The position numbers and the translations under genes were made by a program. This document shows, piece by piece, positions 3,703-33,278 of a stretch of DNA of 64,000 nucleotides (position 1 is the stretch's first letter; each line of letters begins with the position of its first letter). Source of the stretch: an uncultured Eubacterium sp. (GTDB lineage Bacteria > Bacillota > Clostridia > Lachnospirales > Lachnospiraceae); NCBI GenBank assembly GCA_945910225.1, contig CAMDYG010000007.1, forward strand, positions 1 to 64,000, written 5' to 3'. The notes under the pieces were generated by a model. The model did no database searches. It had not been told where the DNA came from and was given only the letters and a program-made list of their open reading frames with translations.

Positions 3703-4698
3703 CTACTTATATGCACCAAGTGTGGCAGCCATAACCGCCTTAATTGTATGCATTCTGTTTTCAGCCTCATCAAATACAACTGACTGCTCTGACTCAAATA
3801 CTTCATCAGTAACTTCCATTTCATCAAGACCGAATTTGTCACGAATTTCCTTGCCAATCTTAGTCTTAAGATCATGGAAAGCTGGCAGACAGTGCATAAA
3901 TATAGCATTTTCTGATGCATTATCCATAACTGCCTTGTTAACCTGATATGGAAGAAGTGCCTTGATTCTCTCAGCCCATACTTCATCAGGCTCACCCATT
4001 GAAACCCATACATCTGTATATAATACATCTGCATCCTTAGTTCCGGCTTTAACATCCTCTGTAAGTGTTACTGAACCGCCGCTTATCTTTGCCCACTCCT
4101 CACACTGTGCAACAAGTACCTTATCTGGGAAATATTCCTTTGCTGTGCAGGCTGTATAATGAAGTCCTAATTTAGAGCACACAATCATAAGTGAATTACC
4201 CATGTTGTATCTTGCATCTCCCATGTAAACAAACTTAACACCTTTTAATCTGCCAAGTTTCTCCTTGATTGTAAGCATATCTGCAAGCATCTGTGTTGGG
4301 TGGTACTCATTAGTAAGTCCGTTCCACACTGGTACACTGGAATACTTAGCAAGGTCTTCAACTATTTCCTGACCAAATCCTCTGTATTCAATTCCTTCAA
4401 ACATTGTACACAGAACCCTTGCTGTATCAGCAATACTCTCTTTCTTGCCAATCTGTGAACCTGTTGGATCAAGATATGTAACACCCATACCAAGGTCATG
4501 TGCTGCAACCTCAAATGAGCAGCGTGTTCTTGTACTTGTCTTTTCAAATATAAGTGCAACATTCTTTCCGATAAGCGGCTGTTCTACAATGCCTTTTTTC
4601 TTCTTATCCTTAAGCTCTGCTGCCAGATCTATTAAATATAAAATTTCCTCAGGTGTATAATCCTTGAGTGTTAAAAAGTCGCGTCCTTTTAAATCCAT
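3703..4698 (-). CDS. argF: Ornithine carbamoyltransferase
   Basis: [21 protein letters not shown], ...[22 protein letters not shown]; start set at [15 protein letters not shown] (4698), preceded by aggagg, instead of the longer ORF. Confidence 0.95.
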
Positions 4699-4806: not shown

Positions 4807-4975
4807 AATGTGGGAAATGGGCGGTTGTGGGAAATGGTGGAAAGCTTCCATTAAACTTCTCGACATAATAATAGGCACTGGGCGGTTTGGGATTTCTCTC
4901 CCGGTCGTTAACGCTGGCAACGCACCTCCTTGTGCGTGCCAGCTCACCGGACTGGTTTACCTTCCGGCCGCCAGT
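4807..4975 (+). repeat. Structured intergenic element, copy L (partial, diverged)
   Basis: cttccattaaacttctcgacataataataggcactgggcggtt and cgttaacgctggcaacgcacctccttgtgcgtgccagc resemble the minus-strand sequence of the neighbouring element at 4976-5196. Confidence 0.7.
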
Positions 4976-5196
4976 AAAAAATGTGGTGTGGCTTTTCTGA
5001 CCGCAAACTATGCACATAATAAAAGCATTGAGCAAATCACTACCTAAGTGTACGCGCGTCCACGGACGGACGTGCGAGCTGTCTCGCACAAGAACGTGCG
5101 TTGACAGCGTAACGAACACTTTCAAAAAAGTAGAACCGCTCAATGCTTATTATTATGTCGCGTAGTTTGTACGGAAGAAAACCACACCACCTTTTT
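4976..5196 (-). repeat. Foldback / structured element, copy R, with about 60-bp imperfect terminal inverted repeats
   Basis: aaaaaatgtggtgtggcttttctgaccgcaaactatgcacataataaaagcattgagc at the left; the reverse complement of the right end is aaaaaaggtggtgtggttttcttccgtacaaactacgcgacataataataagcattgagc; several inner hairpins. Confidence 0.85.
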
Positions 5197-5202
5197 TACC
5201 TC

Positions 5203-6204
5203 TTAATGAAATATATGATTTCCTATAATCACATAATCCGAATAATTATTAACGTTTACTGTACGAAGAGCTCTGAAAGCTGTATATCCACCAATATTGT
5301 TAGCTCCTGAAAGTGCTTCGAGAGCTGCCTGCATACATTCAGAGTTTCTTGGACCATTACTTAATCTTGACTCAAAATTAGATGATGGTCCGCCAGAGCC
5401 ATTAGAAACTCCTGTAAACTGTGATCTCTGGTATATTACGCCTGTAATAGAATCTGGATAATGTGAACTTCTTACTCTGTTAAGAACAACATTTGCAACA
5501 GCAAGCTTTCCTTCATAAGGTTCATATCCTGCTTCCCAGTCAATAACACATGCTAATGCCCATATCTCGTCATCTGATACAGACATTGTCGGATTATATG
5601 TCAGCTCTGTACCTGATATTGTATTGGCAATTATTGCCTGTCTTCTTGCTTCCTCTTCTTCAGCTGCCTTTCTTGCCGCTTCTGCCTCTGCAGCGAGTCT
5701 TTCCTCTTCTGCTATTCGTGCAGCTTCTTCTGCGGCTTCTTTTTCTTCAGCTTCTTCAATTGTATAACCTTCTATAAGATTATCTGTTCCAATCTCTTCT
5801 GATAAAGCTTCTGCCTCATCTCCAAAACATAATGTCTGGGTAAGAACATAACCTTTACAATTACCTGAACTGATTTTAGTCCATTCCTTACTAACCTCAT
5901 CAACATCAACTAATGTGTTAGTATATAATCTTCCTACTATCTGCGCTGATTCTTCATCATAGCTGTCATAAACATCAAGATATGGCTCTGTAACTGCAAT
6001 TGCCTTATTCTTGTATGTTGTGCTTTCTTCATAACCAGTCACAAGATTCTCTTCTGTATTAGCTGAATAAGATGCTACCTTAATTCCTGTGTCAGTACTT
6101 TGTGTTTTCTCATAGGTAGTTGCTACTGTTGGAAGAACCGGTACTGCAAAAAGAATAATTGCGGCTCCCACATAACAAGCAGCTTTGCTACTTCTAAGTT
6201 TCAT
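5203..6204 (-). CDS. Cell wall hydrolase (SleB/CwlJ-type) with signal peptide, SH3-like region and Ala/Glu-rich linker
   Basis: EIWALACVIDWEAGYEPYEGKLAVANVVLNRVRSSHYPDSITGVIYQRSQF; N-terminal signal/TM segment; linker EEAARIAEEERLAAEAEAARKAAEEEEARRQ. Confidence 0.88.
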   Translation of the reverse strand: MKLRSSKAACYVGAAIILFAVPVLPTVATTYEKTQSTDTGIKVASYSANTEENLVTGYEESTTYKNKAIAVTEPYLDVYDSYDEESAQIVGRLYTNTLVDVDEVSKEWTKISSGNCKGYVLTQTLCFGDEAEALSEEIGTDNLIEGYTIEEAEEKEAAEEAARIAEEERLAAEAEAARKAAEEEEARRQAIIANTISGTELTYNPTMSVSDDEIWALACVIDWEAGYEPYEGKLAVANVVLNRVRSSHYPDSITGVIYQRSQFTGVSNGSGGPSSNFESRLSNGPRNSECMQAALEALSGANNIGGYTAFRALRTVNVNNYSDYVIIGNHIFH

Positions 6205-31973: not shown

Positions 31974-32709
31974 TACTAATGAAATCATTCTTGAAGTTAA
32001 AGATTTGAAGAAATCTTTTGGCGACCACGTTGTATTAAAATCAATTAATACAACAGTCCACAAAGGAGAGGTTATTGCAATTATCGGACCATCTGGATGC
32101 GGTAAATCAACATTTTTACGTTCTCTTAATCTTCTTGAAACTCCAACAGAAGGTCATGTATTATTCCACGACAAGGATCTTACTGATAAGAATGTAAATG
32201 TTGATGAATTAAGAGAAAAGATTGGTATGGTATTCCAGCATTTTAATCTTTTCCCTAATATGACTATAAGAAAAAATATTACACTTGCCCCTACAAAATT
32301 AGGACTTATGAGTAAGGAAGATGCTGACAAGAAGGCTGATGAACTTCTTGCAAGAGTCGGTCTTTCTGACAAAGCAGACGCTTATCCTAACCAGTTAAGT
32401 GGTGGTCAGAAACAGAGAGTTGCAATTGCAAGAGCACTTGCAATGAATCCTGAAATAATGCTTTTTGACGAACCAACATCAGCACTTGATCCTGAAATGG
32501 TTGGCGAAGTTCTTGCAATCATGAAAGAACTTGCCGAAGCAGGAATGACAATGATTGTCGTAACACATGAAATGGGATTTGCAAAAGAAGTTGCCAACAG
32601 ATGTATGTTCTTCTATGATGGTGTCATCAATGAAGAAGGTGCACCTGAAGAGTTCTTTGGAAATCCTAAGAGTGAGAGATTGAAGGATTTCTTGTCGAAG
32701 GTGCTTTAA
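31963..32709 (+). CDS. Amino-acid ABC transporter ATP-binding protein (GlnQ-like)
   Basis: [60 protein letters not shown]. Confidence 0.96.
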
Positions 32710-32713
32710 TTAG

Positions 32714-32945
32714 TACAGTGAGGGAGTCGCTTGGGTGTATGTTTATGTTGCATGCTCTCATGGATTCCTCGCCTAGTGAAAGTAAATAACGCCATCTGCA
32801 AAGTCTATTACTATGCATGAAATCAAACGCGCTTCGCTTGAACGAGATTTCATGCACAGACCTTCTGCAGATGGCGTTATTAACATTCACACGACTCGTC
32901 ATAAATCGAGCACACAACTTAAACATACACCCAAACGACACCACC
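32714..32945. repeat. Long foldback element 2A
   Basis: gtcgcttgggtgtatgtttatgttgcatgctc pairs with gagcacacaacttaaacatacacccaaacgac; aataacgccatctgca/tgcagatggcgttatt; tgcatgaaatc/gatttcatgca; apex aagcgaagcg-like. Confidence 0.88.
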
Positions 32946-33065
32946 CCGCTACTAAGCAGCCAAGCCTTCCACGGCTGGTGCAAACGTATCTTATCAACAG
33001 AGGACATCACGCACTTCACCAGCCCCCACTCAGAATGCAATGCCGCAGGCGAGCATTCGTCCGGA

Positions 33066-33096
33066 GGCTGACTATTTGGTGAAGAAGTAGTCAGCC
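33066..33096. repeat. Perfect 9-bp-arm hairpin between elements 2A and 2B
   Basis: ggctgacta tttggtgaagaag tagtcagcc. Confidence 0.75.
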
Positions 33097-33278
33097 GTAC
33101 AGTATGCTGTGGGATAGGTGTGTGGTGTCCTTAGGTGTATGCCCGAATATTCTTATGTCGTGTGAAAGTTAATGCCGCAATCTGCTAAAGGTTGTGGCAT
33201 TTAGTTTCACTAGACATAGGAATCCTGAGGGCAGATGCCTAAGGACATCTCACGCCCTCCCACAGCACACTGTACGGC
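33094..33278. repeat. Long foldback element 2B (about 87-nt arms)
   Basis: gccgtacagtatgctgtggga...aatgccgcaa folds on ttgtggcatt...tcccacagcacactgtacggc; homologous to element 2A in opposite orientation. Confidence 0.88.

What the first reader, a model, noticed from the sequence alone, without database searches (positions are those of the whole stretch)
4807..5160. Two diverged copies of the same structured element head-to-head, with a compensatory base-pair change
Copy L on the plus strand (cttccattaaacttctcgacataataataggcactgggcggtt...cgttaacgctggcaacgcacctccttgtgcgtgccagc) matches the minus strand of copy R (cttccgtacaaactacgcgacataataataagcattgagcggtt...cgttacgctgtcaacgcacgttcttgtgcgagacagc). 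The central hairpin stem is GCTGGC/GCCAGC in L and GCTGTC/GACAGC in R, so a G-C pair became T-A on both sides. That is what selection on a stem, not on sequence, would leave. Copy L appears to lose its right arm where it meets copy R.
Basis: partly seen in the sequence, partly recalled or inferred. Interest (0 to 1): 0.75.

Follow-up and report, generated by a model that had tools for sequence, protein, structure and literature searches.

The report
Paired long DNA palindromes, Rfam TwoAYGGAY
The two head-to-head copies are real and belong to a repeat family that Rfam lists as an RNA of unknown function; in these genomes each copy sits inside a much longer DNA palindrome whose base pairs have evolved like pairs in DNA rather than in RNA, so the family is probably a spreading DNA hairpin element that may have been misread as an RNA.

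Summary
Copy R (4974-5199) is a 226-nt near-perfect inverted repeat with two internal hairpins (z -12.6) and scores above the cut-off of Rfam RF01731 (TwoAYGGAY). Copy L (about 4809-4973, opposite strand) is a truncated second copy; an orthologue in another species has L complete. The G-C to T-A double change is real, and 30 of 31 stem pairs covary across 68 relatives.

The RNA reading does not follow. In the conserved stems G-T mismatches (35) are no commoner than A-C (46); an SRP RNA control gives 362 to 12. Nearly all copies examined carry 25-160 nt of further inverted-repeat arms outside the Rfam model, also without bias (266:287), and paralogues differ by mirrored changes in both arms. 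Copies are intergenic, number 1 to 12 or more per genome, vary between species, show no orientation to genes, and recur as head-to-head pairs. Best reading: a multi-copy palindromic DNA element kept matched by DNA-level copying, some copies then retained by the host; here its outer stem may serve as the hydrolase gene's terminator.

Main rival: a CsrA-binding RNA. Loops fit, and element-bearing genomes encode csrA far more often (44/46 against 107/252), though csrA lies in flagellar loci. No mobilising enzyme was found.

The parts
4974..5199 (+). Copy R: complete palindromic element (outer arms, basal stem, three-way core)
   Evidence: Inverted repeat I2 and fold with z -12.6 as RNA, -12.9 as DNA; conserved 93-96% in orthologues
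5009..5163 (+). RF01731 (TwoAYGGAY) core within copy R
   Evidence: cmscan 50.8 bits, gathering 43
5053..5076 (+). Hairpin 1 of R, loop ACGGAC (AYGGAY type)
   Evidence: Sequence, fold, covarying helix 3
5078..5108 (+). Hairpin 2 of R, stem GCTGTC/GACAGC; its loop has lost GGA in this genome
   Evidence: Sequence; orthologues in G001 and G008 keep GGA
4809..4973 (-). Copy L: truncated second element, opposite orientation; one arm and one hairpin lost (ends approximate)
   Evidence: complete orthologue in G008
4913..4943 (-). Remaining hairpin of L, stem GCTGGC/GCCAGC (the compensated pair is 4917-4939, G-C)
   Evidence: Sequence; same state in G008
4976..4981 (-). T-run on the - strand after R's outer stem: possible terminator of the hydrolase gene
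   Evidence: Sequence; ordinary hairpin plus T-run at the same place in relatives without the element. The simple terminator scan finds none because the hairpin is too large for it
5203..6204 (-). Upstream gene (333-aa cell-wall-hydrolase-like protein); its stop codon abuts R
   Evidence: function judged from the sequence only
3703..4698 (-). argF-like gene downstream
   Evidence: orthologous order in relatives

Best explanation
L and R are two copies of a multi-copy palindromic DNA element whose core is what Rfam calls TwoAYGGAY. Shown: a conserved core (stem, junction, two short hairpins with ANGGAN-type loops, a conserved T-T mismatch) sits in the middle of inverted-repeat arms of 25-160 nt that are largely species-specific; pairing in core and arms does not favour G-T over A-C; paralogues often differ by the same change in both arms; copies are intergenic, in either orientation, and differ in number and place between species. 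Inferred: the folded core is recognised as DNA by an unknown enzyme that spreads the element; the arms are kept matched by copying one arm from the other (template switching, or hairpin-primed synthesis during spread); once in place some copies are retained by selection. At this locus R's outer stem with the following T-run probably serves as terminator of the hydrolase gene, while L decays.
For: Core G-U 35 vs A-C 46, SRP RNA control 362 vs 12 (27:41 vs 71:7 with G-U forbidden in structure choice). Outer arms G-U 266 vs A-C 287. Extra arms of 25-160 nt beyond the Rfam model in nearly all copies with usable flanks. Mirrored substitutions 1131 vs 56 crossed (control), mirrored indel columns 756 vs 7; cleanest in G284. 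1 to 12 copies per genome, patchy across genus, family and phylum. Copies up to 97-98% identical at different places in one genome. At the window locus the element is present in three species and absent in two near relatives; the copy at G000:C9 is absent at that gene in four near relatives. No neighbour-gene preference, no orientation to genes (22 same, 25 opposite). Conserved T-T mismatch in 51 of 68 cores.
Against: No clean empty site with defined ends or target duplication; no transposase at the elements. A small, poorly aligned phylum-wide set leans to G-U (25:9; 18:8 with G-U forbidden). In G011 and G167 arm mismatches are mostly inherited, not mirrored. Orthologous copies are more conserved than neighbouring genes, which a purely selfish element need not be. 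The strong csrA co-occurrence is not predicted.
Confidence: 0.58

Rival explanations
1. TwoAYGGAY is a CsrA-binding RNA: its two hairpins present GGA loops that hold a CsrA dimer, and several copies per genome act as a sponge (proposed by PMC4333381 from loop matches).
For: Loops fit the ANGGA motif in pairs: GGA in both loops in 47 of 68, in neither in 5. csrA present in 44 of 46 element genomes against 107 of 252 others, Fisher p 1.2e-12, not corrected for phylogeny; 9 of 9 in the genus. Orthologous copies conserved.
Against: No preference for G-U over A-C. No promoter-like site on R's strand, and R is antisense to both neighbours. GGA loops are kept at least as well in antisense as in sense copies. 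Several G005 copies lack GGA although G005 has two csrA genes. csrA lies in fliW/flagellin loci with and without the element, so motility may explain the link. The long arms are unexplained.
Confidence: 0.22
2. The element is chiefly a bidirectional transcription terminator placed at gene ends.
For: R starts 3-4 nt after the stop codon and stands where relatives have ordinary terminators. T5 or A5 runs at 16 of 190 element ends against 2.5% background. Convergent contexts outnumber divergent ones 23 to 9.
Against: More than 90% of ends lack such a run; many copies lie 5' of genes or between divergent genes; termination needs neither the conserved loops nor the junction.
Confidence: 0.1
3. The palindromes are passive: long quasi-palindromes kept matched by template switching alone, without function or mobility.
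For: Mirrored changes and no wobble bias; the mechanism is described (PMC8794818).
Against: Core loops, junction and T-T mismatch conserved across genera; family-wide recurrence of one core; conservation of orthologues.
Confidence: 0.1

Closest known systems
Rfam RF01731, TwoAYGGAY RNA (Weinberg et al. 2010, PMC2864571)
   Same: R matches the model above its cut-off; basal stem and two hairpins with AYGGAY-type loops; found in gut Clostridiales.
   Different: Read there as a probable RNA; here with long palindromic DNA arms outside the model, no RNA-type wobble, no strand preference, and head-to-head pairs.
REP / BIME / REPIN elements moved by RAYT (PMC3116915, PMC2817692, PMC3733652)
   Same: Works like: multi-copy intergenic palindromes, pairs in inverted orientation, proposed recognition as folded single-stranded DNA.
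   Different: REPs are 20-40 bp and often in more than 100 copies; these are about 220-480 nt in about 1-12 copies; no RAYT link tested.
MITEs and foldback elements (general knowledge)
   Same: Short, non-coding, inverted-repeat, multi-copy, no transposase of their own.
   Different: Conserved three-way core in the middle, arms not shared between genera, no target duplication shown.
CsrA sponges such as CsrB and RsmZ (as discussed in PMC4333381)
   Same: Paired hairpins with GGA loops; hosts nearly always encode csrA.
   Different: No promoter seen at the window copy, no RNA-type pairing, long palindromic arms.
T-shaped viral terminal hairpins (AAV-type, from memory, architecture only)
   Same: Long self-complementary stem with two small side hairpins.
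   Different: Chromosomal and internal, no related proteins; an analogy only.

Membership tests
RF01731 TwoAYGGAY | Covariance-model score above the gathering cut-off | tested here: met
   R 50.8 vs 43 bits; L does not reach it
RF01731 TwoAYGGAY | Two hairpins with AYGGAY loops | tested here: inconclusive
   R hairpin 1 ACGGAC; hairpin 2 loop lost GGA here but has it in orthologues
RF01731 TwoAYGGAY | Functions as RNA: stems tolerate G-U better than A-C | tested here: not met
   35 vs 46; SRP control 362 vs 12
CsrA-binding RNA | GGA in hairpin loops, in pairs | tested here: met
   Both loops in 47 of 68, neither in 5; one loop in the window's R
CsrA-binding RNA | Host encodes CsrA | tested here: met
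   44 of 46 genomes; own genome has two copies
CsrA-binding RNA | Transcribed, and bound by CsrA | not testable with these tools
   No RNA or binding data; no promoter-like site on R's strand
MITE / foldback element | Inverted-repeat, non-coding, several copies per genome | tested here: met
MITE / foldback element | Target-site duplication and defined ends | tested here: inconclusive
   TA beside the tip in some G011 and G125 copies, but it is itself part of the palindrome
MITE / foldback element | Autonomous relative with matching ends | tested here: inconclusive
   Shared tip searched in 10 genomes: pairs bound only the element
REP / REPIN | 20-40 bp palindrome | tested here: not met
   R is 226 nt; arms 25-160 nt beyond a 168-position core
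REP / REPIN | RAYT transposase in the genome | not tested

The most novel reading that the evidence does not exclude
Rfam's TwoAYGGAY 'RNA' is not an RNA: it is the core of a class of large DNA-hairpin elements in Bacillota, recognised as folded DNA and kept palindromic by arm-to-arm copying, with at least one more, unrecorded family of the same kind in this genome (window 32709-32960). A variant also not excluded: the element is mobile as DNA and carries CsrA decoy sites when transcribed.
Probability: 0.42. Interest if true: 0.75.

Novelty: new variant of a known kind. Interest (0 to 1): 0.6.

Why it matters
Covariation is the usual proof of a structured RNA. Here a curated Rfam family passes that test strongly yet lacks the wobble signature of RNA, which suggests that palindromic DNA elements can pass for RNAs. 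Counting G-T against A-C mismatches is a simple filter that could be run over all Rfam families of unknown function. It also makes two questions testable: what moves or protects large hairpin DNA in gut Bacillota, and why the hosts of this element almost always encode CsrA.

Tried and rejected
Folding with G-U forbidden and counting 1x1 mismatches: no use as an RNA control, because SRP RNA refolds into other structures; replaced by consensus-structure counts. Autonomous transposon via the shared end sequence: pairs bound only the element. Recurring neighbour gene or regulon: none. Same element in phages and plasmids: no match. Naming relatives through genome contigs: only three distant loci. 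Orientation to genes as a sign of cis-regulation: none. Local inverted duplication as the origin of all head-to-head pairs: fits both G005 pairs, not clear elsewhere. Clean insertion at the RNase-HI-like gene of G000: the site is a nest of palindromes, so no ends could be read.

Full report
Observation. Between a 333-aa hydrolase-like gene (5203-6204, -) and an argF-like gene (3703-4698, -) the window holds a 226-nt near-perfect inverted repeat R at 4974-5199 and a diverged, truncated copy L at about 4809-4973 in opposite orientation. Both gene names are read from the protein sequences; no domain search was run on them. R folds with z -12.6. Rfam RF01731 (TwoAYGGAY) matches 5009-5163 at 50.8 bits, cut-off 43.

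Orthologues. The same gene pair in related species gives the history. G008 has both copies complete; G001 has R whole and L reduced to a remnant; the window genome G000 has R whole and L truncated; G014, G017 and several more distant members have no element but an ordinary hairpin plus T-run after the hydrolase stop codon. Whether G014 and G017 never had the element or lost it is open. The L/R double difference is present in G008 too, so it is old. R is 93-96% identical between species while the hydrolase gene is 78-86% identical, with third codon positions at 61-71%; two other orthologous elements are also more conserved than their neighbouring genes. So resident copies can be under purifying selection although others decay.

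The family. RF01731 occurs in 9 of 22 genomes of the genus (1-12 copies), in 46 of 298 genomes of the family (often 9, the number scored) and patchily over the phylum, 51 of 399. Nearly all copies with usable flanks continue outside the Rfam model as an inverted repeat of about 25-160 nt per side (a few cut by contig ends or with unclear limits were set aside). Arms are similar within a genome and mostly unrelated between genera; three genomes share the tip GGATTCRGGTGTCAAAAGG. By a simple ORF count, copies lie between genes, with no orientation to tandem genes (22 same, 25 opposite) and more often between convergent (23) than divergent (9) genes. Neighbours are varied housekeeping genes: 124 Pfam families among 110 proteins, none in more than 3. 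Close pairs recur: among those seen, five independent pairs are (-,+), one is (+,+), none (+,-).

Covariation. In 68 aligned cores, 30 of 31 stem pairs change on both sides; 89% of cells pair; the covariation score is 0.746 against at most 0.166 when slid by 1-3 columns and 0.200 in shuffles.

DNA or RNA. If pairing matters in RNA, G-U is tolerated and A-C is not; if it matters in DNA, or on no particular strand, the two are equal. Core: G-U 35, A-C 46; hairpin 1: 7 and 10; hairpin 2: 2 and 2; basal stem: 26 and 34. SRP RNA of the same bacterial family, treated the same way: 362 and 12. With G-U forbidden in choosing the structure: 27:41 against 71:7. Outer arms, aligned without strand preference: 266:287. 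Caveats: folding a strand adds some G-U to that strand (reverse strand 59:29), and a small, poorly aligned phylum-wide set leans to G-U (25:9, or 18:8 with G-U forbidden).

Arm evolution. Comparing copies within a genome, columns where both arms differ together number 1131 against 56 for the crossed control pattern; mirrored indel columns 756 against 7. The pairs are not independent, and in divergent pairs the aligner favours mirroring; the clean case is G284, where copies C53 and C69 (79% identical columns) show 7 mirrored, 0 crossed and mirrored indels. In G011 and G167 mismatches are mostly inherited. Template switching in DNA can create and repair stems in one step (PMC8794818), which accounts for double changes without wobble intermediates. 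It does not account for the conserved loops, the junction and the T-T mismatch found in 51 of 68 cores, which suggest recognition of the fold.

CsrA. PMC4333381 proposed from the loops that TwoAYGGAY is a CsrA-binding RNA. I tested a necessary condition: csrA is present in 44 of 46 element genomes and 107 of 252 others (p 1.2e-12, not corrected for phylogeny). In the 17 csrA regions read, from genomes with and without the element, csrA mostly lies with fliW, flagellin and fliD, so a motile lifestyle may underlie the link. Against an RNA sponge: no wobble preference; R is antisense to both neighbours with no promoter-like site on its strand; GGA loops are kept at least as well in antisense as in sense copies; several G005 copies have lost GGA. 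I keep it as the main rival.

Mechanism. Committed reading: a palindromic DNA element, probably spread by an unknown enzyme acting on its folded core, kept palindromic by arm copying, sometimes retained by the host. Shown: architecture, DNA-type pairing in Lachnospiraceae, concerted arms in several lineages, copy-number and site differences between species. Inferred: the enzyme, mobility in the strict sense, the route of arm copying, and terminator use at this locus (stop codon, stem, then TTTTTT on the - strand; T or A runs at 16 of 190 element ends against 2.5% background).

A second family. Window 32709-32960 is another long palindrome with about ten relatives in the same genome, unknown to Rfam, and again without wobble bias (19:17). 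It suggests that several families of this kind exist here.

Limits.

Noticed in passing
32709-32960: A second long-palindrome family, not in Rfam above cut-off: about ten relatives in the same genome (68-80% identical), conserved centre CGCGCTTCGCTTGAACG, again no wobble bias (G-U 19, A-C 17)..
   Followed up: partly
33094-33278: A further long palindrome right beside it (z -14.7), between an ABC-transporter gene and a truA-like gene; only weak, below-cut-off miRNA matches in Rfam..
   Followed up: no
L011:1441-1625 (G000:C9): A mini element just after the stop codon of a formate-tetrahydrofolate ligase gene has lost both inner hairpins; the orthologue in G008 (L036) is complete..
   Followed up: partly
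L002:1480-2040 (G000:C9): The element behind an RNase-HI-like gene is nested in members of the second palindrome family, and about 140 nt of it are duplicated downstream..
   Followed up: no
A1 columns 31/166 and 21/176: T-T mismatches conserved at two places in a stem whose other pairs covary (51 and 43 of 68 copies)..
   Followed up: partly
genus-level csrA search: Six of nine element-bearing species have two csrA genes, against two of ten csrA-bearing species without the element (p 0.07)..
   Followed up: no
G005:C47, G005:C33, G007:C9, G008:C117, G048:C123: Close pairs are all divergent (-,+); only G160:C36 is (+,+). Cause unknown..
   Followed up: partly
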